From Clostridia bacterium (GTDB taxonomy: Bacteria > Bacillota > TC1 > UBA5767): a DNA stretch of 64,000 bases. How positions within the stretch are numbered: the stretch's first letter is position 1; each line of letters opens with the position of its first letter. The DNA lies in NCBI GenBank assembly GCA_016887505.1, contig CP069393.1, positions 2,441,001-2,505,000 of the forward strand, read 5' to 3'. The notes under the pieces are model-generated. The model had not been told where the DNA came from and made no database searches. It saw only the letters and a list, made by a program, of their open reading frames with translations. Positions 4,964 to 64,000 of this stretch are shown here, piece after piece. Made by a program: the position numbers and the translations under genes.

Positions 4964-5870
4964 AGAACTGTTGCAGAAAGTTGCCGATATCAAAGAGGTA
5001 CCGAAAGGTGCTCATAGCATACGGGAAGATGGCGGATCCTATAGCCTTTATTCCACGGAAACCGTGAAAATTAAGGCCCGAGAAGATAAGATGGGCATCG
5101 ACATTCATGTCCTGCCTGGAAGCAAAGGGGAAACGGTGCATATCCCGGTTATTATTACGGCAAGTGGACTCAAGGAAAGAGTCGTCAACACCTTTTTAAT
5201 CGGAGAAGGCGCAGATGTGAACATTGTGGCTGGTTGTGGCATCCACAACTGTGGTACAGGCGATTCGCAGCACGATGGTTTACATACCTTTCATTTGGAA
5301 AAAAACGCAAAGCTTAAATATACAGAAAAGCACTATGGTGAAGGAGATGGCGGTAAGAGATTTCTGAATCCTAAAACGGAGTTAGTTCTAGAGAAGGGTT
5401 CGCAGGCTATTTTGGAAATGGTGCAGATCGAGGGCGTAGATGATACGACTAGAGAAACGGTCGTGGAGCTTGAAGATGATGCCAGCCTGCTCATCCAAGA
5501 ATCGATGCTTACGGATAGTCAGCAAAGGGCCAAGAGTATCGTGGACATCATTTTAAAAGGTGAAAATGCAGATGCCCAGATTATTTCCAGAAGTGTGGCC
5601 AAGGGCAATTCTAGACAGGAATTTGAATTAAAAATGACGGGACGCAATCATTGTCGTGGACACATCCAATGCGACTCGATCATCATGGATTCGGCACAAG
5701 TCTCTAGTGTTCCGGAAATTCGAGCAGAACATGAGGGCGCTAGCCTGATTCACGAGGCAGCCATTGGACGGATTGCAAGTGACCAGCTAATCAAACTGAT
5801 GACCCTGGGCCTAAATACAGAGCAAGCAGAAAAAGTTGTAATTGAGAGCTTCTTGAACGAAGAGGTATAG
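4947..5870 (+). CDS. sufB: Short SufB/SufD-family Fe-S scaffold protein (SmsB-like)
   Basis: A 307-residue SufB/D-fold protein, far shorter than classical SufB (about 470 residues). The C-terminal core is recognisable: GRNHCRGHIQCDSIIMD, then the acidic and histidine-rich stretch around EIRAEHEGASLIHEAAIG. A GCGIHNCGTGDSQHDG segment near residue 95 supplies conserved Cys and His candidates for cluster ligation. I chose the ATG at 4947 because AAGGAGATT lies just upstream and it gives translational coupling to sufC; an upstream extension would lie wholly inside sufC. It probably builds [4Fe-4S] clusters with the preceding ATPase for the many Fe-S proteins encoded here. Confidence 0.86.
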   Translation: MDKTAKELLQKVADIKEVPKGAHSIREDGGSYSLYSTETVKIKAREDKMGIDIHVLPGSKGETVHIPVIITASGLKERVVNTFLIGEGADVNIVAGCGIHNCGTGDSQHDGLHTFHLEKNAKLKYTEKHYGEGDGGKRFLNPKTELVLEKGSQAILEMVQIEGVDDTTRETVVELEDDASLLIQESMLTDSQQRAKSIVDIILKGENADAQIISRSVAKGNSRQEFELKMTGRNHCRGHIQCDSIIMDSAQVSSVPEIRAEHEGASLIHEAAIGRIASDQLIKLMTLGLNTEQAEKVVIESFLNEEV

Positions 5871-5935
5871 TCTACCCAGAATAGGGGTTTTCTGATACAA
5901 TACAGAAGGATTTTTAAGAAAAAGGCGGTGAAAAT

Positions 5936-6220
5936 ATGTCCATCAGCAAAAAAGAAGTTGAACACGTTGCCAAACTGGCACGTTTGGAACTAACGGAAGA
6001 AGAAAAAACATTGTATACCGAGGAACTGAATGCTGTTCTTGGATTCATGGACACTTTGAATCAATTGGATATCAGCCATGTGCCTCCGACCAGTCACGTG
6101 CTGGATATCAAAAACGTATTCCGAGAAGATGTAGTGGAGCCTTCGATGGAACCTGAGGAAGTGGTAGCCAATGCTCCAGCGGCTAAGGACAACCAGTTCC
6201 GTGTGCCCAAAATTATGTAG
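5936..6220 (+). CDS. gatC: Asp-tRNA(Asn)/Glu-tRNA(Gln) amidotransferase subunit C
   Basis: A 94-residue GatC, the small subunit that stabilises the GatA-GatB contact in the tRNA-dependent transamidation route to Gln-tRNA and Asn-tRNA. Typical features are the [16 protein letters not shown] opening and the [10 protein letters not shown] and RVPKIM segments near the end. Length is normal. An AAGGCGGTG ribosome binding site precedes the ATG. The 65 bases upstream contain TGATACAAT, a possible extended -10 box, so the gat genes may have their own promoter as well as read-through from sufB. Confidence 0.96.
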
Positions 6221-6233
6221 CGAGGTAATAAAC

Positions 6234-7700
6234 ATGAAATTTCATGAAATGAGTGCCCACGAACTAAGTGAATTGATGGTGAAAAAAGAAGTCAGTTCCT
6301 TGGAAATCGTGAGCGAGCACTATGAACATATTCGTACAGTAGAACCCAAAGTACAGTCCATGGTAAGTCAGACGGAAGAGTTGGCGATAAACCGGGCAAA
6401 AGAAATAGATGCAAGGCGGATTATGGGTGAAGAACTTTCTCCCCTGGCAGGTATCCCGATGGGAATCAAGGATAATATTTCCACCAAAGGTTATACGACG
6501 ACTTGCAGCTCCAAGATGTTGGAAAACTATGTGCCGGCGTATGATGCCCATGTAATGGAAAAATTGAATGCTGCAGGTGGCGTTATGGTAGGAAAGCTCA
6601 ATATGGATGAGTTTGCCATGGGGTCCTCAACGGAGAATTCTAGATTTTTCCCAACCAAAAACCCTTGGAATTTAGACTGTGTACCGGGAGGATCGTCAGG
6701 TGGTCCGGCAGCCTGTGTGGCAGCGGGAGAAGCCGTGTTCTCTCTTGGTTCAGATACGGGTGGATCAATCCGCCAACCAGCTTCCTTGTGTGGTCTGGTG
6801 GGCTTGAAGCCAACCTATGGTAGAGTATCTCGCTATGGCCTGATTGCGTTTGCATCTAGCCTAGATCAGATTGGTCCTTTTACCAAAGACGTAGAAGACT
6901 GTGCGCTGGTTATGGAGAGCATTGCCGGCTATGACAAAAGAGATTCCACATCAGCAAATGTTGAAGTACCCCGGTACCGTGATTTTCTAAATCAAGATGT
7001 AAAGGGTATGAAAATTGGTGTACCGAAGGAATATTATGGTGAAGGCCTAGATGAGGGAACCGTTGCTTTGGTTCAAGAAGCCATTGAGACCTTTAAAAAA
7101 CTAGGTGCAGAGGTAGAAGAAATTTCCATGCCTTACACCAAGTACGCCCTTCCGGCATACTATATTATTGCACCAGCTGAATGCTCCTCCAACCTAGCTC
7201 GTTTTGACGGTGTGCGCTATGGCTACCGTGATATGGAAGCGGAGGATGTGTACTCCATGTATACGAGGACCAGAGCCGAAGGGTTTGGTCATGAAGTTAA
7301 GAAGAGAATTATGCTGGGTACGTATGCACTCAGCTCAGGCTACTATGATGCCTATTACAAAAAAGCCCAACAGGTCCGCACCTTGATTAAACAAGACTTT
7401 GACAAGGCTTTTGAAAAATTTGATGTATTGCTTACCCCAACGGCTACCGGACCTGCCTTTAAGTTTGGCGAAAAGACAAAGGATCCATTGAGTATGTATC
7501 AATCCGATATTTGTACTGTAACCATCAACATGGCAGGCGTACCTGCGCTGTCCATGCCTTGTGGATTTATTGATGGCCTGCCCATCGGTATGCAACTGAT
7601 CGGGGCGCCCTTTGCAGAAGGCACTATTCTAAAAGCAGCACATGCCTATGAGCGCGCTACGGATTTCCATACCAAACGTCCGAATCTGGAGGTGGAATAA
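6234..7700 (+). CDS. gatA: Asp-tRNA(Asn)/Glu-tRNA(Gln) amidotransferase subunit A
   Basis: A 488-residue amidase-signature enzyme that hydrolyses glutamine to supply ammonia to GatB. The Ser-cisSer-Lys triad is visible: the lysine in GIKDNIS (about residue 79) and the serines in the GGSSGGPAA and [13 protein letters not shown] motifs. The start is set at the ATG at 6234, preceded by GAGGTAATAA; the longer reading would overlap gatC and lacks the family N-terminus [11 protein letters not shown]. It overlaps gatB by one base (TAATG), so translation is coupled. Confidence 0.97.
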
Positions 7701-51656: not shown

Positions 51657-52955
51657 ATGCTGAATAAGAAATCGACGTATACGGTAACGGCCAGTGATTT
51701 AACCCAAGATGGGGACGGCGTAGCCCGGATCGATGAGTTGGTAGTATTTGTACCGGGACTGTTGCCTTTGGAAAAGGCGCATATCCGGCTTAAGAAAATT
51801 AAGAAGAGTTATGCCCTGGGGGAATTGGTGGAGATTCTTGAAAAGAGTCCTTACAGGGTGAAGCCACCGTGTAGATTTTTTCCTGAATGCGGGGGATGCG
51901 ATATTCAGCATCTAACCTATTCAGCTCAGTTGGATTTGAAGAAGAATCAGGTAGGCCAGGTTTTGGCGCGTATTGGTGGCTTGGAAGATATAACAGTAAG
52001 ACCGGTTATAGGCATGGATGATCCGCTACGCTATAGGACGAAGATTCAATTTCAGGTGAGGGGACATGAGCTTGGTTTTTTTGCTAAGAAGTCCAAGCGT
52101 TTTGTAACAATCAAGGAATGTTTGTTGATTCCTGGGGATATGAGTGAACTTAAGAGGCAGCTTGAGACTTTTCTTGCCAAGCATTCACTTCAAGTCAATA
52201 GGGTGGTCATCAAGAAGAGTATTAAAAACTCTAATTTTATGGTGATTCTGCATGGAAAGGTGCCAACGGGAAGCGTACTCAAACGCATGAAGGATTCTTG
52301 TCATGAATTGCGTAAGGTTGTGAGTCTGGTTTGGTTTGATAGTGAGGAGCATAAATACTATCACCTAAGTGGAGATGACTATATTGAAGAAAACATCTTA
52401 GGCTTTACCTTCCGGATTTCACCGCTTGCTTTTGTGCAAGTAAATCATAGTCAGATGCAGGCCCTGTATGCTTATGCATTAAATAAGGCTGCCATAACCA
52501 AAGAAGACCAAGTATTAGACCTTTACTGCGGGATGGGAAGTATTACTTGCCATATAGCCAAGAGAGCTGGTGAGGTTATAGGCATAGAAGTGGTGCATTC
52601 TGCGATTAGAGATGCTGAGCTAAATGCAAAATTGAATCATATCGACAATGCCCGTTTTCTCTTGGGCAAGGTGGAAGAAATCCTCCCAGAGAAGCTTCCT
52701 AAAGATTTCCATCCAGATGTCATCTTTCTAGATCCACCCAGGTCTGGCGTTGAAGCAGAAGCCCTACAAGCAATACTAGATGCTGGCCCGCGTGAAATAC
52801 TATATGTATCATGTAATCCTGCCACACTAGCAAGAGACCTGAAGCTTCTACTAGAGACCAACCAATACCAGATCGTGGATGTGCAACCATTTGATATGTT
52901 TACGCAATCGACACATGTGGAGACGGTAGTAAAACTACAACGCCAGAACCCTTGA
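51657..52955 (+). CDS. rlmD: 23S rRNA (uracil-5-)-methyltransferase RlmD/RumA family
   Basis: A 432-residue RNA m5U methyltransferase. An N-terminal TRAM domain (SDLTQDGDGVARIDELVVFVPG) is followed by Fe-S cysteines (CRFFPECGGCDIQHL), the SAM motif LDLYCGMGSITC and the catalytic VSCNPATLARDL. The ATG at 51657 follows AGGGGGCAAGC, and the C-terminus HVETVVKLQRQNP looks complete. The 3' end of this gene is a known insertion target of integrative elements in streptococci. The character of the DNA changes immediately after it. Confidence 0.92.
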   Translation: MLNKKSTYTVTASDLTQDGDGVARIDELVVFVPGLLPLEKAHIRLKKIKKSYALGELVEILEKSPYRVKPPCRFFPECGGCDIQHLTYSAQLDLKKNQVGQVLARIGGLEDITVRPVIGMDDPLRYRTKIQFQVRGHELGFFAKKSKRFVTIKECLLIPGDMSELKRQLETFLAKHSLQVNRVVIKKSIKNSNFMVILHGKVPTGSVLKRMKDSCHELRKVVSLVWFDSEEHKYYHLSGDDYIEENILGFTFRISPLAFVQVNHSQMQALYAYALNKAAITKEDQVLDLYCGMGSITCHIAKRAGEVIGIEVVHSAIRDAELNAKLNHIDNARFLLGKVEEILPEKLPKDFHPDVIFLDPPRSGVEAEALQAILDAGPREILYVSCNPATLARDLKLLLETNQYQIVDVQPFDMFTQSTHVETVVKLQRQNP

Positions 52956-53210: not shown

Positions 53211-55163
53211 TTATTGGTCAATAACTGAGAAACCAGTTTTATTTAATTTATCGATAAGCTCCTGTTTATAATTAGAAATTGAAGTCTCGCTGATAAATAT
53301 TGTTAAATTACGGCGAGATCTAGAACAGCCAACATAAAATAAACGATATGCACTCAGTGAACCATAAACTACACTTTCTTTGAAACATTTGATTACTCGA
53401 GTTTTATTTGGTCTTGAGAGGTAATCGGTATAATCTTTTTCACATAATAGTTGAAAGTATTGATTATCAGAATAATGTGAAAGTAAAGAGTTAACACGAG
53501 ATACTAAATAATCCATCTTTTCGGCATGTAGTTCTGGAGTGATATCAGATATCTGGAAACCTAATTCGGTATTAGTTTCATTAATCCACTTGCAGTATTC
53601 ATAATAAAAGGATTCGAATGTAGTAAGTGAAATATCATTAGTGCTCCAGAGCTCAAAAAATTTGTACATATGTACAACAGGTATTCTATTACTATTCTCT
53701 GCGATGAAAAAGACGGTATCGTGACTTTCACCTTTAACACCATGCTGTGTTGAAATATTAGGGCTTTTTAAATAATTTAGGATAGCTTTGAACTCAGAGA
53801 ATTTTACATCTAAAACATTGGAGTATTCTATTTCATAATCAGGATCAAGGTAATCTGTTCTAATAAGATTGCTTTCTAGTAAGCATGATAGTATGGTTTC
53901 TAGTTTGTTTGTTACATCGTTGCTTAGGTACTGGGTAATAACTTTCTCTAGAATAGTTGAAAGTCTTTTTTTGTCATCGTGAGACTTAAACTCATATATC
54001 TTTGCATTAAAGATTCTGTGGTTTTGTTTGAATAATTGAAGTATTTTGCCCAAGTTGTGATGATTGTAATAATCTGAGATTTCTGCAATGATAAAGAATA
54101 CTCTTAAAATTGGATCAGGATTCTCATTTGAAAAATCTGTAAGAATATCAGAGGCGCTATATTTTTGAACATGAGAATACCTTTCCAAACGGTTAAGTGT
54201 GCGATATAAGTTCCCACACCCAATAGAATCGAATTTTTTTTGATTTAAAAGATATAAACAAAGAGCATTTGGGAAACAATTAAGCTCCTGATTAATCGCT
54301 TTCTCGATATCGTTACAAATTATTACTCTAGGATTGTGGTCTGGTTTGATATCGATATTTTTACTTGAAGGTACTTGTACAAATGAAGGGTCGTTGTACA
54401 GTTTATTAAGAATATCAATAACTTCAGATATCGAACGGTGATTAGTTGTAAGGGAGATAGTGGTATTTAAACTTGATAATTGTTTTTCAAATGTACCATC
54501 ATAATTTTTATATATTTGTTGCATTTTATCACCTAATAAGTATAGTTTAGATGGCGTATTTAAAGTCGCGTTATAAAAGATCTTTAGTATATCAGCAGAT
54601 GCATCTTGATATTCATCTATAAAAATAGCCTGAAATTTCTGTGATAAACGTTTTTTTATTACAGTGAAATTATCAAATATCACTTTTGAAAATACAATTA
54701 AATCATCATGTGAAAGCCCGCCGTAATATAAGGAGTTGAATGCTGTTTCATTATATGATAATGACGTGATATTGCTTTTTAGCGTGTCATAATCCAAAGA
54801 ACCATATTTTTCAATGTACTTTTGATTACTATTATTGATATGGTCTTCATTTTCAATATTTTCAATGCGTTTTTTTATTTTATTACTATAGAATTTAAAA
54901 TAGAGTTTTAAAATATCCTGATGACTAAAATAGACACCAATAAAATCGTTTAAAAAGGAGTGAATGGTTGATATGTGAATTTTAGGATTATTCAAATCTT
55001 TATTCAATTCTTCGGCAGCACGATTTGTGTAAGTTATACATAAAATATTATCTTCTGGGAATTCAATAGAGTGATTAGTGACCATAGAACGTATTTTATA
55101 TGTTTTACCACTTCCAGCCGGTGCATTTACTAGAAAAATATTATCAACTATTGAATTAGCCAA
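53211..55163 (-). CDS. UvrD-like SF1 helicase of a Gabija-like defence operon
   Basis: A 650-residue UvrD/PcrA-like helicase. Walker A is NAPAGSGKT (residues 14-21), motif II is FIDEYQDASADI, and LGDKMQQIYKNYDG and a late YVGCSRSRRNL are motifs III and VI. The start is TTG, five bases behind GGAGGG, and overlaps the upstream gene by 16 bases, so the two are translationally coupled. With an OLD-family TOPRIM nuclease as partner this is the Gabija (GajA-GajB) architecture, though it is longer than GajB of Bacillus (about 494 residues). Codon use is much more AT-rich than the flanking chromosome. Defence role is inferred. Confidence 0.85.
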   Translation of the reverse strand: MANSIVDNIFLVNAPAGSGKTYKIRSMVTNHSIEFPEDNILCITYTNRAAEELNKDLNNPKIHISTIHSFLNDFIGVYFSHQDILKLYFKFYSNKIKKRIENIENEDHINNSNQKYIEKYGSLDYDTLKSNITSLSYNETAFNSLYYGGLSHDDLIVFSKVIFDNFTVIKKRLSQKFQAIFIDEYQDASADILKIFYNATLNTPSKLYLLGDKMQQIYKNYDGTFEKQLSSLNTTISLTTNHRSISEVIDILNKLYNDPSFVQVPSSKNIDIKPDHNPRVIICNDIEKAINQELNCFPNALCLYLLNQKKFDSIGCGNLYRTLNRLERYSHVQKYSASDILTDFSNENPDPILRVFFIIAEISDYYNHHNLGKILQLFKQNHRIFNAKIYEFKSHDDKKRLSTILEKVITQYLSNDVTNKLETILSCLLESNLIRTDYLDPDYEIEYSNVLDVKFSEFKAILNYLKSPNISTQHGVKGESHDTVFFIAENSNRIPVVHMYKFFELWSTNDISLTTFESFYYEYCKWINETNTELGFQISDITPELHAEKMDYLVSRVNSLLSHYSDNQYFQLLCEKDYTDYLSRPNKTRVIKCFKESVVYGSLSAYRLFYVGCSRSRRNLTIFISETSISNYKQELIDKLNKTGFSVIDQ

Positions 55164-57226
55164 AGTAATCCCTCCTCAATGTATTTTGGTAGAAGCTGTT
55201 CGGTATAATTATTAAGTATTACTGAATACATAAAATCTGTTTTCCCATTTGATGTATGTGCAACGATATCGCGTATACAATACCGAGCATTTTTTTGAGG
55301 GATTGTATATTTCAAATTATCATTAGATCTTAGTTTAACCCATGAGGATCTATTTTTGCTTGTGAATGCATTTACATTATAGTGTTTTGCTAACATTGCT
55401 TCTTCTAACGTTCTTGAATATCCATCATCTTTACCTTGATAGGCTAAGTAAGCATGTCCGTCTAGAATGACATTACCACCTAAGTAAGACCAATTATATA
55501 AGTCAGATACGTTCGGTTCAACATTATTGTGTGTATCCTTATAAAAATTTTTAAGAGTTGCATTTGTAGTAAATGAATTTTGTATTTGATTTTCAGTTTT
55601 TGCCAATTTGTCATAATCTAAATCTGTAATAATTAATGTTTTAACCTTAAGGAATTCAATAAGCTTCTTGTAATTATAAGCATAAGCACCGCCAACTTGA
55701 ACAAATGCAACATAAAGCTGATTTAATTTTTTAAAGCAATCAAATGTTGCAATTTTTCGTATTAGCATTCTTTCGGTATCACCCTCATATAATATAACTC
55801 TATCTGCAAAAACTACTTCAGAGAAGCCTACTTCAAAGAACCAGTCATAAAAATTATCAATTATTGGATCATTTTTGATTTCATCCTTAAAATCATAAAA
55901 ATCAAGTATATCGCTTTTAAAATTACTAAAAGAACGGCTTATTCTTAGATTCTTCATATCAGTTGCTCTGACTATTTCACTTGAATGAGTTGTTATTAGA
56001 CCTTGAATTTTCTGCATTTGATAGTATTTTCTTAAGTATTTTCCAAAAACATTTTGCATTTGAGGATGCATATGAGATTCAGGTTCTTCAATAAAGAACA
56101 TGTTAACCAGTAGGGAATTTATACTCAATTTATAATTCTCTAATTGTACTAGTATGTAAATCATATTGCTGTACCCAAGTCCCTGTGAAGATTCATTTAG
56201 GAAGTGATTATCAACAAGATACTTGGCGCTTGTAATTTGCATTATCAAGGTTCTGATAGCATCTTCAGAGACATCCATATTAAGTACCATGTTTCCAGTA
56301 TTTCCACCATTAGTTTGAGCTATTGAACTAATAGCATCACTTAGTCCGTTAATAGAAGTCTCTTGAACAAGTGAAGTAATATTTTCTGCTTCTAGTCGTT
56401 GTAATATCTTATCTGGTAACTGTTCAATCAACGATTTCCATTCTTTATTATGACTTGTAAGGGTGATCATATCTTTGCTTAAAGTTTTGTGTTTATCTCC
56501 ATTTTGATCATCCAGAGATCTGCCAGCACAGATATTATGAAAGTTAAATAGTTTTTTGAAGCTCTTTGTTTCGATTTCGTTGCGATTGCTAAATTGCTTA
56601 TCCGTAAAAAAGCATTTATCAACTAAGCAAGAAACATATAACTTGAGAATACGTTCCTTGATGGAGTTTATTTTTAGAATATCAGAATCCGGATCTGTTA
56701 GCTGAGCAAAGCGTAATTTTAATTTGCCAAAATCATTTGCTAGAACCTTGCCAAAAATCGATGCGGTTGGTTCAAAACTATATTCGAAATAGAAAGAGTG
56801 ATTTGTCGGATCAAAGTCCATAATATAATCAGCAAAATTTCTTATGTCGTCATTCTGAGGATCATAATCAATGGTAAATTTAACGTTTGTTAGTGGTAAA
56901 AGAATTGGCTCTGTTTCAGTTATAGAGTCAAGGCCAAAAATACTGTTTACTATATCGTGAATTACTTTTTCATTATCATGTATTTGAGTAAATGAATTTA
57001 AGAAGAGTGGATATACTTTATCTAGCCATTCTTTAGAATTTTCAACTGGAATATCTTCAACTCTTAAATTAGTTTTTGTGCTATTAATTATATGTTCCAT
57101 CAATTCGATAATAGATGTTTTACCACTATTGTTTGCGCCTGCTAATAAAGTAATGTCTTCATCAAATGAAAGTGCAGTATTTAAGAATTTACGATAGTTG
57201 TTTACTTCAATTCGTTTTAATATCAC
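55148..57226 (-). CDS. OLD-family ATPase/TOPRIM endonuclease (GajA-like)
   Basis: A 692-residue protein with an N-terminal ABC-type ATPase and a C-terminal TOPRIM nuclease. Walker A is GANNSGKT (residues 30-37), the signature region SSQGLGYSN and the Walker B FFIEEPESHMHPQMQ follow. The TOPRIM motifs are VILYEGDTERML near residue 475 and IITDLDYDK near 535. Gabija GajA has the same layout but is shorter (about 578 residues). I chose the GTG at 57226, six bases behind GGAGGT; an ATG at 57241 is possible. It is the first of two coupled genes, in very AT-rich DNA. Confidence 0.85.
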   Translation of the reverse strand: MILKRIEVNNYRKFLNTALSFDEDITLLAGANNSGKTSIIELMEHIINSTKTNLRVEDIPVENSKEWLDKVYPLFLNSFTQIHDNEKVIHDIVNSIFGLDSITETEPILLPLTNVKFTIDYDPQNDDIRNFADYIMDFDPTNHSFYFEYSFEPTASIFGKVLANDFGKLKLRFAQLTDPDSDILKINSIKERILKLYVSCLVDKCFFTDKQFSNRNEIETKSFKKLFNFHNICAGRSLDDQNGDKHKTLSKDMITLTSHNKEWKSLIEQLPDKILQRLEAENITSLVQETSINGLSDAISSIAQTNGGNTGNMVLNMDVSEDAIRTLIMQITSAKYLVDNHFLNESSQGLGYSNMIYILVQLENYKLSINSLLVNMFFIEEPESHMHPQMQNVFGKYLRKYYQMQKIQGLITTHSSEIVRATDMKNLRISRSFSNFKSDILDFYDFKDEIKNDPIIDNFYDWFFEVGFSEVVFADRVILYEGDTERMLIRKIATFDCFKKLNQLYVAFVQVGGAYAYNYKKLIEFLKVKTLIITDLDYDKLAKTENQIQNSFTTNATLKNFYKDTHNNVEPNVSDLYNWSYLGGNVILDGHAYLAYQGKDDGYSRTLEEAMLAKHYNVNAFTSKNRSSWVKLRSNDNLKYTIPQKNARYCIRDIVAHTSNGKTDFMYSVILNNYTEQLLPKYIEEGLLWLIQ

Positions 57227-57267
57227 TGTGTTACCTCCCATATCAACATTGATTTCTAATTCAATAA

Positions 57268-57483
57268 TTAGATTCTTTCCCCATTCTTCTCAACAAAATA
57301 CCCCTCAAACTCACAATCTAAAGCTTCGCCAATCGCTTCTAACTCATTCACAGAGAAGTTATCTCTTTTGAGTTTATTAGCCATGTTCTGATTTGTGGTA
57401 CCGAGTCTTTTGCTAAGTTCTATTATCGTTACATTCTTTCTTTTAAGTAAAATACGGATCTTTTCACCCATCGTTAATTTCAT
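57268..57483 (-). CDS. Small XRE-family regulator
   Basis: A 71-residue single helix-turn-helix protein (IRILLKRKNVTIIELSKRLGTTNQNMANKLKRDNFSVNELEAI). It stands upstream of the defence-like pair on the same strand with its own ribosome binding site (AGGTGA, six bases before the ATG). It probably represses the divergent promoters described at 57507-57644. Confidence 0.8.
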   Translation of the reverse strand: MKLTMGEKIRILLKRKNVTIIELSKRLGTTNQNMANKLKRDNFSVNELEAIGEALDCEFEGYFVEKNGERI

Positions 57484-57506: not shown

Positions 57507-57535
57507 ATAATACACCTATTAGTGAATATCTGCAA
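57507..57535 (-). promoter_or_regulatory. Leftward promoter of the XRE-nuclease-helicase operon
   Basis: Read on the minus strand: TTGCAG (57535-57530), a 17-base spacer and TATTAT (57512-57507). One copy of AGTGAATATC (57521-57530, plus strand) lies in the spacer and -35 edge. Confidence 0.7.
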
Positions 57536-57595: not shown

Positions 57596-57644
57596 TTGAT
57601 ACAGTTAATCTAAAAGTGTATTATCACATTATAAAGTGAATATC
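57596..57644 (+). promoter_or_regulatory. parA promoter and downstream operator repeat
   Basis: TTGATA (57596-57601), a 17-base spacer and TATTAT (57619-57624). The second copy of AGTGAATATC is at 57635-57644, just after the start site. The same 10-mer occurs in the divergent promoter, suggesting one regulator for both. Confidence 0.75.
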
Positions 57645-57664: not shown

Positions 57665-58447
57665 ATGAGTAAAATTATAGCTGTAGCATCCCAAAAAGGT
57701 GGGGTAGCCAAAAGTACAACTTGCAGGAATTTAGCAACAATCTTAGCAAAGGAGGGTTACAAGGTACTGGCAATCGATACGGATAACCAAGCCTCCATGA
57801 CTGACTGCTTTGGTATTGTAAAACCTGAAACTTTGGATACGACACTGTACCATTTGATGATGGCTGTTATGAATGAAGATGATCTTCCGCCAAAAGAGAG
57901 TTACATACTAAATAGTGATGGTGTGGATGTTATTCCAAGTAGTATTGAAATGTCAGCCATTGAAATGAACTTGGTCAGTACTATGAGCAGAGAGTATGTT
58001 CTAAAAACAATCACAGAAAAGCTTAGACCAGATTATGATTTCATCATTGTAGATTCAGCACCATCTTTAGGCTTGATGACTTTAAATGTATTGGCTGCTT
58101 GTGATAGCGTATTGATTCCGGCAACACCGGAGTACCTATCTGTAAAAGGTTTGGAGTTATTACTTCAAACAATTATGAAGATAAAGCGCAGAATTAATCC
58201 AAGCATTACTTTTGAAGGTATTCTGCTAACCATGTTTGATGAAAGAACCAATCTATCCAAGAATATGATTGAAATGGTGGATGAAGCTTATGGTGAACAT
58301 ATCAAAGTGTTTGATATTAGGATACCTAAGTCAGTAAAAGTAGGTGAAGCCAATCTTCAAAGTAAATGTATTGTGGATTATATGCCAACAAATAAAGCTG
58401 CTATAGCGTATCAGGAACTAGTAAAGGAGTTGATTAGTAATGGATAA
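57665..58447 (+). CDS. parA: ParA/Soj-family partition ATPase
   Basis: A 260-residue ParA ATPase with the deviant Walker A QKGGVAKST at about residue 9, the AIDTDNQASMT loop and the IIVDSAPSLGLMT switch. The GVGKTT consensus is changed to GVAKST, while the signature and catalytic lysines are kept. In Tn1549/CTn-like elements such a gene stabilises the excised circular form. GAAAGGAGC precedes the ATG. It overlaps parB by eight bases. Confidence 0.92.
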   Translation: MSKIIAVASQKGGVAKSTTCRNLATILAKEGYKVLAIDTDNQASMTDCFGIVKPETLDTTLYHLMMAVMNEDDLPPKESYILNSDGVDVIPSSIEMSAIEMNLVSTMSREYVLKTITEKLRPDYDFIIVDSAPSLGLMTLNVLAACDSVLIPATPEYLSVKGLELLLQTIMKIKRRINPSITFEGILLTMFDERTNLSKNMIEMVDEAYGEHIKVFDIRIPKSVKVGEANLQSKCIVDYMPTNKAAIAYQELVKELISNG

Positions 58448-59462
58448 AACAAAAATGAAAAAAGTTGAAACCTTTGCCTCAATATTTGGTGAAGATCACA
58501 GTGAAGTGCCATCTGAAAAACAAGATGGCACAACCTCTTTAAAGCTGGATGATCTTATTCCTTTTAGAAATCACCCATTCAAGCTTTATGAAGGGGACCG
58601 GTTTAATGACATGGTGGAGAGCATTAAAAACTACGGTGTGATTGTTCCTATTGTAGTAAGAAAAGTGGATGATAAGTATGAAATATTATCTGGCCATAAC
58701 AGAGTTAATGCGGCTAAAGAAGCTGGATTAACTGAAGTTCCAACAGTTATTAAAGAAGGACTTACAGAAGAAGAAGCAACACTCATAGTCACTGAAACAA
58801 ATTTAATGCAACGATCTTTTTCAGATTTAGCTTACTCAGAAAGAGCCACGGTTATTGCTACTAGACATACAGCCATGAAGAAACAAGGTGTAAGAAATGA
58901 TCTGCTAGATGAAATTGAAAAGCTATCGAAAGCTCCTGATTTGTCAGCTGATTCAACTTTTCGCCCAATGGGCGAAAAGTTAAGGTCTGATCAAAATATT
59001 GGTGAAGAATACGGTATTTCTCCAAGAAATATATCAAGATACTTACGTATTAACGAATTAAGTGCTCCATTAAAAGACTTAGTTGATGAAGGTAAAATTG
59101 CTATGCGAGCTGGGGTAGACCTCTCTTATCTATCACAGGAAAATCAAGAAATGGTGGAGGCCATTATTTCTGAAAACACATTTAAAGTGGATATGAAAAA
59201 GGCTGCTCTTTTGAGAAAGCATGAGAAAGAGGGTAACCTAAACTGGAATACAGCCCAAAAGATTATTAATGGAGATATGCTAAAAAGCACTGGTAAAGTG
59301 AAACCATTTAAGCTACAACCAACAATCATTTCAAAGTATTTTAATCCAAATGAAGATAAGAAGGCTATTGAAAAAACAATTGAAAAGGCTCTTGATTTTT
59401 ACTTTAGCCAGATGAAAAACCAATCACATTACATTGAGGAGGGGGAGGAGATGATTGAATAG
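58440..59462 (+). CDS. parB: ParB-family protein
   Basis: A 340-residue ParB/Spo0J-like protein. The N-terminal nuclease-like domain contains LDDLIPFRNHPFKLYEGDRF, the EILSGHNRVNAAKEAG box and TETNLMQRSFSDL. A KorB/ParB helix-turn-helix follows (GEEYGISPRNISRYLRINEL). The coding sequence carries a 27-base inverted repeat at 58955-58981. It ends in ATGATTGAATAG and overlaps the next gene's TTG start. Role: partitioning or stabilisation of the integrated element. Confidence 0.9.
   Translation: MDKTKMKKVETFASIFGEDHSEVPSEKQDGTTSLKLDDLIPFRNHPFKLYEGDRFNDMVESIKNYGVIVPIVVRKVDDKYEILSGHNRVNAAKEAGLTEVPTVIKEGLTEEEATLIVTETNLMQRSFSDLAYSERATVIATRHTAMKKQGVRNDLLDEIEKLSKAPDLSADSTFRPMGEKLRSDQNIGEEYGISPRNISRYLRINELSAPLKDLVDEGKIAMRAGVDLSYLSQENQEMVEAIISENTFKVDMKKAALLRKHEKEGNLNWNTAQKIINGDMLKSTGKVKPFKLQPTIISKYFNPNEDKKAIEKTIEKALDFYFSQMKNQSHYIEEGEEMIE
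58955..58981. repeat. 12-bp-arm inverted repeat inside parB
   Basis: AACTTTTCGCCC (58955-58966), spacer AAT, GGGCGAAAAGTT (58970-58981). The arms match perfectly, although the sequence is translated (STFRPMGEKL). Confidence 0.8.
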
Positions 59463-62400
59463 ACTGACAGAAATCAAGGAAATTTATGACTACATCTTGA
59501 AGGAAATCATGCAAGATGAGCAGGCATGGAAATACTTTCTAACATTTCATGCAAAGATATATAAGCACAGCTTTAATAATGCCGTGCTCATATATGCCCA
59601 AAGACCTGAAGCTACATTAGTTGCTGATATGGAAATCTGGAACCGTCGCATTGGCAGGTGGATTAACAGAGGTGCTAAGAGTATTGCAGTCTTCGATGAT
59701 CAAAGTGCTTATTTAAAACTAAAATACCTGTTTGATATTGAAGATACCCATGGCCAGCCACATACCATTCCAAAAGTGTGGAAATTGAATGAAACATTAG
59801 AATCACAACTATTAGAAAGTTTTAATGCAAACACCCTGTCAGAATGGATTGCAAGGCGGACCCATGAATCTGTCCTTGCTTATACCTCAGATATCCAGCA
59901 AGGTCTTGAAAAGGAATTGCCTAAGACCAAATTATCGGGACTTCCCGTTGAAGGCGTTTTAAGGCAGTTTATGCAGTCTCTTATGGATAGTGTAGAGTAT
60001 ATGACAGCCATTCGATCAGGCATTGAAGAACCTAAGCTAAGTAATCTAAATTCATTTAGTACAGTAACAGATTTTGATTCAAAGGCATTAACACTAAGAT
60101 TAGGTTATCTGACAAGTACCATCTCAGAACATATTCTAAGAGAAATCGAAAGAGAAATTAAGACCATCAAAGAAGAAAAAAGGAGCGTGAATGTTAATGA
60201 AACCCATGGAACTCAGTTATCAGGAAGTACAAGGGATTTATCATCCTCAGATTCAAGTATCGAGGGAGGAAAGCTACGACAAGAAGCCGCTAGGGAAGTA
60301 CGGGCAGATGGCGTTGAATTATCTGAAAGAGGAACACATCAATCGGTACAATTATCTAGTGACCGAAGGGACGTTGCTTCCAATGATGCATCAAGTGAAC
60401 GAGGAAGCGTGGGAGAGGATGGAGAAACTTCAAGGCCAGATGCTACAAGAAGAACCCATTCAGGACCCGACCAACACTTATCAGACTTATCATCACAGAG
60501 AGATGATCAGAATGAGAGCGGAGGAGATCGTTCTTCAAGAAATCATCTTCAAGGAGAGATAGCAAAAGATTTAGAGCTGCCAGAGCGTAGCTCTTTTTTA
60601 ATGGAACTAACAGATGATGAAATTATTGAAAAGGTAGTACTAAGAGGTTCTGGTTTTGAAGGTGGGAAACAGCGGATTGTAGATTTCTTCTCAGAAGAAC
60701 ATACTGCAAAAGAAAAAGCAGACTTTCTAAAAAATGAATATGGTACTGGCGGTAGTTCTGTTACATTCTCTGATGATTTAAGTGGTTTTGAAAACCACGA
60801 CAGTAAAGGAATTACAATTGATATTTATAAAAGCGATAAAGAAATTCATTTGTCTTGGGCTAAAGTGGCTTCTGGTATTGATGCCTTAATTGATAACGGT
60901 AAATATTTTGAACCACGTTATAAAAATGATAATCCACCAACAAGAAAGACAGTGTATCAACCAACATTATTTGACTTAGGTTACGCTGAAAATGACATTA
61001 GGCATGAGAATTATAAAAAGTTAATGAAGGTTGCTCCTGGAATCTTAAACGGACGTTATCGGTATATGAAGCTAAAAGCGCCTGGCTTTATGGACCTTGT
61101 CATTGAAAGACTTTATGAGAATCGAATCTCTCTATCCCATTATTACGAGCAAAATGGAGATTTAATGAGTGATCCAGATATGGAACTCATAGTGGACCAT
61201 AATCAAAAGACATTAACAGCAGCCACTTTTCAACAAGATAATATGGCAATCTATCATGTAGCGTATCAGGGTGATGAGTTGATTAATCTTGATTTAGAAG
61301 ATGAGTTAAATGATTTTCTAAAAGATTGGTTATCAAATATTGCTAGGCAAGGTCACATTGTTTATAAGGCTTATTATTTAGAGGATATTGATGAAGAGAA
61401 TCAAGAACCAATATTTGATGATAACGGTCATGAAATCATTATTGAAGCATCTTCAAAAACGGATGATTTATTGGACTTAGAAGATGAGGATCTCCATGAA
61501 TATCCTTTAGAAGTGGGTATGGAAGTGGATATTGAGGGAAGGAAATTTCAGATCGAATCCATTGATTATGATAGCAATGCGGTATCTCTTATGGATTTAA
61601 CTTTTGCAGGGCAAACGGGTTATCCAATTTTCAGAAAAGAAAGTGTTGATTTTATTTTGGATTTTCTCCCTGATGAGAAACCACTGACTGAAGAAGAAAA
61701 GTGGGGCATTGTATCCATTGGTCCAGTTAAAGATGAAAAGAAAAAGGAGGAACAATCTACAAAAATCAATTATCAATTTTCACCTGAAGATGAGATTGGT
61801 ATTGGTGGGTTAAAAACAAAATTCAGAGCCAATGTTGAAACCATTAAAACGTTAAAAGTTATTGAGGCAGAAAATCGAATGGCAACAGATAAAGAACAAT
61901 CCATCTTAGCCAGGTATGTAGGTTGGGGTGGTATGCCTGGGGCTTTTGATATAGGGGCAAGTGGCTGGAGCAATGAGTATGCTGAATTAAAGAAACTCTT
62001 GTCACAAGAAGAATACGATAGTGCAAAAGCCTCAACGCCCAATGCCCACTATACATCTTCAATTGTCATTCAAAGCATTTATCAGGCACTTGATCAGTTT
62101 GGTTTTAAAAAGGGGAACATCTTGGAACCTTCCTTAGGTGTTGGTAATTTCTTTTCCCACCTTCCTGACTCTATGAACAAGTCAAAACTCTTTGGGGTTG
62201 AACTGGATGATGTATCAGGTCGTATTGCAAGACAGCTCTATCAGAATGCACAGATTCAAATTAAAGGTTATGAAGAAACACAGTTTGAAGATAACTTTTT
62301 TGATGTAGCCATTGGCAATGTCCCTTTTGGTAATTATAAAGTATATGACAGACTTTATGATAAGCATAACTTCATGATCCATGACTATTTCTTAGCAAAA

Positions 62401-64000
62401 ACATTAGATAAAGTACGTCCTGGTGGCATCATTGCCTTTGTTACCAGTAAGGGAACCATGGACAAAAAAGATCAAGCTGTCAGAAAGTATATTGCTGAAA
62501 GAGCAGAGCTGATAGGTGCAATACGATTACCCAATACAGCATTTAAGGAAAATGCTAATACCGATGTAACAGCAGATATTCTTTTTCTTAAAAAAAGAGA
62601 ACGCAGGTCGGTGGAAATACCAACTTGGCTATCAGTTACAGAAAATGAAAATGGGGTCCCCGTCAATCAGTACTTCATTGACCATCCCCATATGATGCTT
62701 GGTGAAATGATATTTGATGAAAGAATGTTTGGTAGAGACAGTCGTTATACGACATGTGTAAATACAGATAGTAACTTTAATCTACAAGAAGCTCTAACAG
62801 AAGCAGTCTCTCATCTTCAAGCTGAAATCGGCTATTACGAGCAGGCAAAAAAAGAGGATAACAATGACATCCCTGCTGATCATAAGTATAAGAACTACTG
62901 TTATGCCTTTATAGATGACAAACTTTATTACCGTGAAAACTCTATGATGAGACGAATGGATTATACCGGTAAAACCCTTGAACGTATTCAAGGCATGATG
63001 GCGATTCGTGAAATAACAAGAGAAACCATTACACTTCAAATGGAAGGTTGTACTAAGGAAACGCTTGAAAAGGCTCAAGATCAATTAAATCAACTCTACG
63101 ATACATTTGTGAAGAATCATGGTTATATTACTTCAAGACCAAATGCCAGTGCCTTCCGTGATGACAATGATTATCCACTTTTATGTTCTCTAGAAGTGGA
63201 GGATGAAGATCATCATGTCACAAAGGCAGACATGTTTACCAAAAGAACCATTAAGCCTTATGAATCCATAACAGATGTAGATTCTGCATTTGAAGCATTA
63301 ACAGCTTCCTTAAATGAAAAAGGCATGGTGGATATTCCATTTATGGCTGAGCTTTATGATGAAGAACCTCAAGTCATCATTAAAGAGCTTGAACAAGACA
63401 TTTATCTGAACCCTGAAAAGTATGATGAAAATGATGTTTTAAGAGGCTGGGAGACAGCTGATGAGTACCTCTCAGGTGATGTTAGGCAAAAACTTAAATT
63501 TGCCAAGGTCTTTGCGGATATGAATCCTGAACTCTTTTCTAAGAATGTCCCTGCCCTAGAAAAAGTACAACCCATTGATCTTGAAGCCAGTGATATTGAT
63601 GTAAGGTTAGGAACCACTTGGATTGAACCAACAGATTATGAGCAGTTCATCTATGAGACCTTGAAAACACCGAGATATTATTACAATACTGGTGGAAGAA
63701 ATGAAATCAAAGTGCACTACAACAATTACAATGCAAGCTTTGCAGTTGAGAACAAAGGATTAGATGGCTATTCAGTTTCAGCCAAAGAAACCTATGGTAC
63801 ATCTAGAATGAATGCTTACTACATCATTGAAGACAGCTTAAACCTTAGAAATTCTACGGTGAAGGATCGCGTTGAAGATGGTGATACAGTAAAATATATC
63901 ATCAACAAAAAAGAGACCATGCTGGCGAGAGAAAAACAATCACTGCTAAAACAAGCCTTTAAAGAATGGCTATTTAAAGATCCAGAAAGACGTAAAAAGT
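59455..64000 (+). CDS. Giant element-encoded DNA methylase/helicase protein, partial (runs off the window)
   Basis: One reading frame stays open from 59455 to the window end, over 1,500 residues. The start is TTG, behind GGAGGAG and directly after an in-frame TGA, overlapping parB by eight bases. The first 60 residues resemble the ArdC-like start (FHAKIYKHSFNNAVLIYAQRP ... WINRGAKSI). A low-complexity Ser/Arg/Asp-rich linker runs to about residue 380. The N6-adenine methylase motifs are LEPSLGVGNF (about residue 892) and IGNVPFGNY (about 953). In Tn1549/CTn-like elements this gene also has an SF2 helicase domain, expected beyond this window. Confidence 0.87.
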   Translation, partial: MNRLTEIKEIYDYILKEIMQDEQAWKYFLTFHAKIYKHSFNNAVLIYAQRPEATLVADMEIWNRRIGRWINRGAKSIAVFDDQSAYLKLKYLFDIEDTHGQPHTIPKVWKLNETLESQLLESFNANTLSEWIARRTHESVLAYTSDIQQGLEKELPKTKLSGLPVEGVLRQFMQSLMDSVEYMTAIRSGIEEPKLSNLNSFSTVTDFDSKALTLRLGYLTSTISEHILREIEREIKTIKEEKRSVNVNETHGTQLSGSTRDLSSSDSSIEGGKLRQEAAREVRADGVELSERGTHQSVQLSSDRRDVASNDASSERGSVGEDGETSRPDATRRTHSGPDQHLSDLSSQRDDQNESGGDRSSRNHLQGEIAKDLELPERSSFLMELTDDEIIEKVVLRGSGFEGGKQRIVDFFSEEHTAKEKADFLKNEYGTGGSSVTFSDDLSGFENHDSKGITIDIYKSDKEIHLSWAKVASGIDALIDNGKYFEPRYKNDNPPTRKTVYQPTLFDLGYAENDIRHENYKKLMKVAPGILNGRYRYMKLKAPGFMDLVIERLYENRISLSHYYEQNGDLMSDPDMELIVDHNQKTLTAATFQQDNMAIYHVAYQGDELINLDLEDELNDFLKDWLSNIARQGHIVYKAYYLEDIDEENQEPIFDDNGHEIIIEASSKTDDLLDLEDEDLHEYPLEVGMEVDIEGRKFQIESIDYDSNAVSLMDLTFAGQTGYPIFRKESVDFILDFLPDEKPLTEEEKWGIVSIGPVKDEKKKEEQSTKINYQFSPEDEIGIGGLKTKFRANVETIKTLKVIEAENRMATDKEQSILARYVGWGGMPGAFDIGASGWSNEYAELKKLLSQEEYDSAKASTPNAHYTSSIVIQSIYQALDQFGFKKGNILEPSLGVGNFFSHLPDSMNKSKLFGVELDDVSGRIARQLYQNAQIQIKGYEETQFEDNFFDVAIGNVPFGNYKVYDRLYDKHNFMIHDYFLAKTLDKVRPGGIIAFVTSKGTMDKKDQAVRKYIAERAELIGAIRLPNTAFKENANTDVTADILFLKKRERRSVEIPTWLSVTENENGVPVNQYFIDHPHMMLGEMIFDERMFGRDSRYTTCVNTDSNFNLQEALTEAVSHLQAEIGYYEQAKKEDNNDIPADHKYKNYCYAFIDDKLYYRENSMMRRMDYTGKTLERIQGMMAIREITRETITLQMEGCTKETLEKAQDQLNQLYDTFVKNHGYITSRPNASAFRDDNDYPLLCSLEVEDEDHHVTKADMFTKRTIKPYESITDVDSAFEALTASLNEKGMVDIPFMAELYDEEPQVIIKELEQDIYLNPEKYDENDVLRGWETADEYLSGDVRQKLKFAKVFADMNPELFSKNVPALEKVQPIDLEASDIDVRLGTTWIEPTDYEQFIYETLKTPRYYYNTGGRNEIKVHYNNYNASFAVENKGLDGYSVSAKETYGTSRMNAYYIIEDSLNLRNSTVKDRVEDGDTVKYIINKKETMLAREKQSLLKQAFKEWLFKDPERRKK

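What the first reader, a model, noticed from the sequence alone, without database searches (positions are those of the whole stretch)
53211..57483. Gabija-like nuclease-helicase pair with a dedicated XRE regulator, carried by an integrated element
The sequence shows an OLD-family ATPase/TOPRIM protein (Walker A, Walker B and TOPRIM motifs) translated with coupling into a UvrD-like helicase, with a small HTH gene at the front. GajA-GajB of Gabija have the same two-domain partners. Both proteins here are over 100 residues longer than the described Bacillus ones, and the added HTH is not part of standard Gabija. The whole cassette is AT-rich and sits at the edge of an integrated element, where cargo is expected. 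That it is an anti-phage system is inference.
Basis: partly seen in the sequence, partly recalled or inferred. Interest (0 to 1): 0.75.

Follow-up and report, generated by a model that had tools for sequence, protein, structure and literature searches.

The report
Gabija phage-defence genes on an ICE
This is an ordinary two-gene Gabija anti-phage system carried as cargo at the edge of a 93-kb conjugative element that also holds a second Gabija and a BREX system; the small regulator gene beside it belongs to the element, not to Gabija.

Summary
The two large genes match PADLOC GajA and GajB profiles of the same length, end to end (E 4e-288 and 1e-253), with key catalytic motifs intact and a 16-bp gene overlap. 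They are a known subfamily of Gabija (class 2 OLD nuclease plus UvrD-like helicase). Their extra length is normal for it: relatives run 689-748 and 641-661 aa.

The 'dedicated XRE regulator' is not supported. The HTH gene was found in none of 24 GajA relatives. Instead it sits divergent from parA in three related elements, two of them without Gabija, with a conserved dyad upstream. In two relatives it is followed by its own hairpin. Here none is seen and gajA starts about 41 bp downstream, so read-through is possible.

The element is a 92.7-kb ICE in the 3' end of rlmD (rumA), with a 23-bp direct repeat, one copy in rlmD and one in the serine recombinase gene, as described for rumA ICEs. It also carries a BREX type 1 gene set and a second, distant GajAB pair. 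A relative has yet another GajAB pair in the same HTH-rlmD slot. Defence activity was not tested. New member of a known kind.

The parts
52909..52931 (+). attL: 23-bp direct repeat CGACACATGTGGAGACGGTAGTA inside the 3' end of rlmD (rumA); the other copy (attR) is at C1:23586-23608 inside the serine recombinase gene
   Evidence: rejoining the two host flanks restores the C-terminus HVETVVLMSRVK, like relatives without the element
53211..55163 (-). gajB: UvrD-like SF1 helicase, 650 aa, TTG start overlapping the end of gajA
   Evidence: PADLOC GajB PDLC00109, E 1.1e-253, positions 3-645 of 647; Pfam UvrD-helicase; model pLDDT 89.5, best folds Rep/UvrD, GajB among hits
55148..57241 (-). gajA: OLD-type ABC ATPase plus TOPRIM nuclease; ORF 697 aa, likely true start GTG at 57226 (692 aa)
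   Evidence: PADLOC GajA PDLC00082, E 3.8e-288, positions 3-692 of 694; Pfam AAA_15 and OLD-like_TOPRIM; best fold GajA 8u7i; best solved sequence for the family profile GajA, E 4e-19
57268..57483 (-). XRE/Cro-type HTH gene, 71 aa: a backbone gene of the ICE, divergent from parA; not part of Gabija
   Evidence: HTH_26; 61-68% identical copies divergent from parA in L076, L078, L079; not found in gajA relatives
57511..57526 (.). Putative operator dyad TACACCTATTAGTGAA just upstream of the HTH gene (consensus TACACTAATTAGTGTA)
   Evidence: Aligned in five HTH upstream regions; best match beats shuffles (p 0.004 here, 0.036 in the weakest of the five)
57624..57639 (.). Second, weaker palindrome (TCACATTATAAAGTGA) in the parA promoter region; not significant here against the operator consensus
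57665..58447 (+). parA of the ICE backbone
   Evidence: Pfam AAA_31
58440..59462 (+). parB of the ICE backbone
   Evidence: Pfam ParB_N, HTH_ParB
59455..64000 (+). Start of a 2368-aa ICE backbone protein; DUF6908 detected in the part within the window, the rest unclassified here
   Evidence: a homolog lies next to parB in L078

Best explanation
53211-57241 encodes a complete two-gene Gabija system of a longer-protein subfamily, carried as cargo between attL and the partition/regulator module of a 92.7-kb ICE integrated in the 3' end of rlmD (shown by sequence). Its mechanism is most likely that of known Gabija (inferred from homology): GajA multimers bind GajB, whose helicase engages DNA exposed during phage replication; nucleotide depletion then frees the TOPRIM nuclease, which nicks or cleaves DNA and stops the phage. 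The HTH protein is the ICE's own small repressor, probably acting on its own promoter and perhaps on the divergent parAB promoter (inferred). In this copy gajAB lies just downstream without a detectable terminator, so part of its expression may follow the ICE regulator (inferred).
For: Full-length GajA/GajB matches; active-site motifs conserved in relatives, with E486, K41 and H419 aligning to E379, K35 and H320 of B. cereus GajA, mutants of which were assayed in PMC8136825. GajA fold best match is GajA. The pair with its overlap is kept in 23 of 23 loci that reach gajB, from Bacillota to Corynebacterium, Arthrobacter and Bartonella. The element also holds BrxA, BrxB, BrxC, PglX, PglZ, BrxL and a second GajAB. 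The HTH gene is found with parA/parB in rlmD-integrated elements carrying other cargo. A strong hairpin follows it in L077 and L079; none was found here. The att arrangement matches single-serine-integrase rumA ICEs (PMC4701971).
Against: No activity was tested. Similarity to the experimentally studied B. cereus proteins is remote (phmmer with GajA alone did not reach B. cereus GajA; only the profile did). The GajB model is closer to Rep/UvrD than to B. cereus GajB, and overall TM-scores are modest. Assembly into the 4:4 complex was not modelled.
Confidence: 0.88

Rival explanations
1. The HTH gene is a dedicated regulator of Gabija, and the three genes form one defence operon.
For: It lies 26 bp upstream of the gajA ORF on the same strand with no terminator found between them.
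Against: No HTH homolog in 24 gajA loci; none of the genes next to gajA in loci with enough upstream DNA is such a gene; close HTH homologs sit divergent from parA in elements with other cargo, and two relatives have a hairpin right behind the HTH gene.
Confidence: 0.07
2. The pair defends the ICE against competing plasmids or ICEs rather than the host against phages.
For: It sits on a conjugative element beside BREX and a second Gabija, and its slot is swapped among related elements.
Against: Known Gabija systems were shown to act on phages (PMC10568477); nothing here measures plasmid exclusion.
Confidence: 0.15
3. It is a cellular repair nuclease-helicase pair, not defence.
For: RecB/PcrA/UvrD and RecF/Rad50 families give weak matches.
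Against: Those scores are far below their curated cut-offs while GajA/GajB models fit end to end; the genes are AT-rich cargo of a mobile element with other defence systems.
Confidence: 0.03

Closest known systems
Gabija (GajA/GajB; class 2 OLD nuclease plus UvrD-like helicase), PADLOC models PDLC00082 and PDLC00109
   Same: Domain content, gene order, gene overlap, full-length profile match and conserved catalytic motifs.
   Different: Proteins are 692-697 and 650 aa against 578 and 494 in B. cereus VD045, but that is the norm for this subfamily; sequence similarity to the solved proteins is low.
Single-serine-integrase ICEs integrated in rumA/rlmD (PMC4701971)
   Same: Direct repeat with one copy in rumA and one inside the serine recombinase gene; exchange of the 3' ends of the two genes; relaxase, coupling protein and conjugation ATPase genes present.
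   Different: 92.7 kb, 23-bp repeat (2-21 bp in the streptococcal set), another host group; partition module with the XRE gene; two Gabija pairs and BREX as cargo.
Small defence-island regulators (RptR, BrxR/CapW, C proteins; PMC12255303)
   Same: A DNA-binding gene in front of defence genes.
   Different: Here the regulator belongs to the ICE backbone and occurs without the defence genes.

Membership tests
Gabija | GajA: N-terminal ABC ATPase plus C-terminal TOPRIM nuclease (OLD family) | tested here: met
Gabija | GajB: UvrD/PcrA/Rep-like helicase encoded next to GajA | tested here: met
   conserved adjacency
Gabija | TOPRIM catalytic residues (E379, D511, K541 of B. cereus GajA) | tested here: inconclusive
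   E379 aligns with E486, and a DxD motif with D540/D542; D511 and K541 lie beyond the alignment, though E613, K667 and D669 are invariant or nearly so in relatives
Gabija | GajA tetramer and 4:4 GajA-GajB complex | not tested
   Only monomer models were made
Gabija | Protection against phages | not testable with these tools
   Needs a plaque assay
rumA-type serine-recombinase ICE | Integration in the 3' end of rumA with a direct repeat in rumA and in the recombinase gene | tested here: met
   literature
rumA-type serine-recombinase ICE | Relaxase, coupling protein and conjugation ATPase genes | tested here: met
   PF03432, PF02534 and a TraG-type ATPase
rumA-type serine-recombinase ICE | Excision and transfer | not testable with these tools
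   Needs PCR for the circular form and mating
Dedicated defence-operon regulator (HTH) | Regulator co-occurs with the defence genes in relatives | tested here: not met

The most novel reading that the evidence does not exclude
An ICE's own XRE repressor has captured a defence system: with no terminator left in front of newly inserted gajAB, it couples Gabija expression to the regulatory state of the element (for example switching it as the ICE enters a new host), and the HTH-attL gap is a slot where unrelated Gabija systems are swapped between ICEs.
Probability: 0.25. Interest if true: 0.5.

Novelty: new member of a known kind. Interest (0 to 1): 0.3.

Why it matters
It shows one conjugative element carrying two different Gabija systems and BREX type 1, and a cargo slot in rlmD-integrated ICEs that has received different Gabija pairs in different elements. 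It also shows how a regulator beside a defence operon can be mistaken for part of it. If the ICE repressor does control gajAB, it would be a simple test case of how mobile elements time their defence genes.

Tried and rejected
HTH as part of Gabija: rejected after comparison in both directions (gajA relatives and HTH relatives). Unusual protein length as a novelty: rejected, it is the norm of the PADLOC subfamily. Integration at a tRNA: no tRNA in the window. A complex model was not attempted. Searches of the family and class for the HTH and ParB found no close copy outside the genome itself because these groups hold only 4 to 10 genomes (likewise the order of G093); the phylum sample was informative. 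More distant HTH homologs (33-54%) also exist, and three of those fetched (L080-L082) are not beside parA, so the family is wider than these ICEs. One Pfam call failed on a bad frame and was repeated without it.

Full report
Observation. The GajA-like ORF has AAA_15 and OLD-like TOPRIM domains, the GajB-like ORF a UvrD-helicase domain, and the small ORF a Cro/C1-type HTH. gajB starts at a TTG inside gajA, an overlap of 16 bp. gajA probably starts at the GTG at 57226, which follows GGGAGGT by about 7 nt and is where most relatives have their ATG. The cassette is 28-33% GC, below both the chromosome just to the left (42-45%) and the ICE backbone (36-38%).

Identity. The best PADLOC models are GajA PDLC00082 (E 3.8e-288, 694 positions) and GajB PDLC00109 (E 1.1e-253, 647 positions), both matched end to end. 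Curated repair families such as RecB, PcrA and RecF score far below their cut-offs. The longer proteins are therefore the normal size of this subfamily: 689-748 aa for GajA and 641-661 aa for GajB among the relatives aligned. The helicase also matches the DRT-associated RTasHel model (E 1.5e-82), as do the other two GajB proteins examined, more weakly.

Relatives. A genome scan gave 24 loci, mostly Bacillota, with Corynebacterium, Arthrobacter and Bartonella. All 23 that reach far enough have gajB next, overlapping by 16 bp (20) or 19 bp (3). Walker A, Walker B, H-loop, TOPRIM glutamate and DxD are conserved, as are the helicase motifs. A profile of the family finds solved GajA first among PDB sequences (E 4e-19); in that alignment K41, H419 and E486 fall on K35, H320 and E379 of B. 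cereus GajA. E379A abolished its nuclease activity in PMC8136825, while K35A and H320A did not. The AlphaFold model of GajA (pLDDT 84) matches GajA structures best; that of GajB (pLDDT 89.5) matches Rep/UvrD best, with GajB further down.

The element. A 23-bp repeat lies at window 52909-52931, in the 3' end of rlmD, and at C1:23586-23608, inside a serine recombinase gene. The contig is 2,563,013 bp and the interval runs across its start, so the element measures 92,713 bp if the contig is a circle. Joining the two host flanks restores an rlmD end of HVETVVLMSRVK, like the ends in related genomes without the element there (HVETVVLLEWK, HVETVVLMSRK), which also supports the circle. The present rlmD ends in KLQRQNP supplied by the ICE, and the recombinase gene has received the old end of rlmD. 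This reciprocal exchange is what was described for streptococcal rumA ICEs with a single serine integrase (PMC4701971). Relaxase, coupling protein and a TraG-type ATPase are present. The cargo includes BrxA, BrxB, BrxC, PglX, PglZ and BrxL and a second GajAB pair of other PADLOC subfamilies (PDLC00091 and PDLC00129).

The HTH gene. No homolog was found among ORFs of the 24 gajA loci, and the gene next to gajA there is something else in each locus with enough upstream DNA (L016, L020 and L028 have little). In 399 genomes of the phylum the HTH protein has three close homologs (65-69%), and a fourth is in Acetoanaerobium noterae (61%). In three of these four (L076, L078, L079) it lies divergent from parA and parB, and rlmD follows the cargo at the other side. 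In L079 that cargo includes another GajAB pair, of subfamilies PDLC00070/PDLC00117 and in the opposite orientation; in L076 and L078 nothing there matches gajA or gajB. In L077 the gene stands without parA. The upstream region keeps a dyad, consensus TACACTAATTAGTGTA, near the HTH start, found once in the window at 13 of 16 matches or better. Behind the HTH gene L077 and L079 have strong hairpins followed by T-rich sequence; in the window none was found. The simplest reading is that the HTH gene is ICE backbone and gajAB was inserted behind it.

Mechanism. Inferred from Gabija literature: GajA assembles with GajB, the helicase engages phage DNA, falling nucleotide levels relieve inhibition of GajA, and the TOPRIM site cuts DNA. 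Nothing here was tested biochemically. Control by the ICE repressor is a possibility that follows from gene order alone.

Verdict. A complete Gabija system of a known subfamily on a defence-rich rlmD ICE; ordinary as a system, mildly interesting for its context.

Noticed in passing
G000 C1:2537596-2551620 (L013:4596-18620), outside the window: BREX type 1 gene set (brxA, brxB, brxC, pglX, pglZ, brxL) on the same ICE.
   Followed up: yes
G000 C1:2553081-2557038 (L014:81-4038), outside the window: A second, distantly related GajA-GajB pair on the same ICE, shortly after brxL.
   Followed up: partly
L079:2604-6441: In a related rlmD ICE of another family, a different Gabija pair occupies the same slot between the HTH gene and rlmD, in the opposite orientation.
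   Followed up: yes
L076:8232-9335: In Acetoanaerobium noterae a 367-aa protein with no Pfam match starts 15 bp after the ICE HTH gene; possibly unknown cargo in the same position as gajA here.
   Followed up: no
L016: A contig filed under Candidatus Heimdallarchaeota carries a GajAB 55-57% identical to this one; 4.4 kb long, so possibly a misbinned bacterial contig.
   Followed up: no
L015:8073-10024: gajB of Paenibacillus sp. JCM 10914 is split into two ORFs, perhaps a decayed gene or an assembly error.
   Followed up: no
window:53211-55163: The GajB helicase also matches the PADLOC RTasHel model (DRT-associated helicase) over its full length, E 1.5e-82, hinting that the helicase type is shared with reverse-transcriptase defence systems.
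   Followed up: no
G000 C1:3450-5333 and 5709-7187 (L039): A further serine recombinase gene and, by eye only, an HsdM-like gene inside the interval, so the element may be composite.
   Followed up: no
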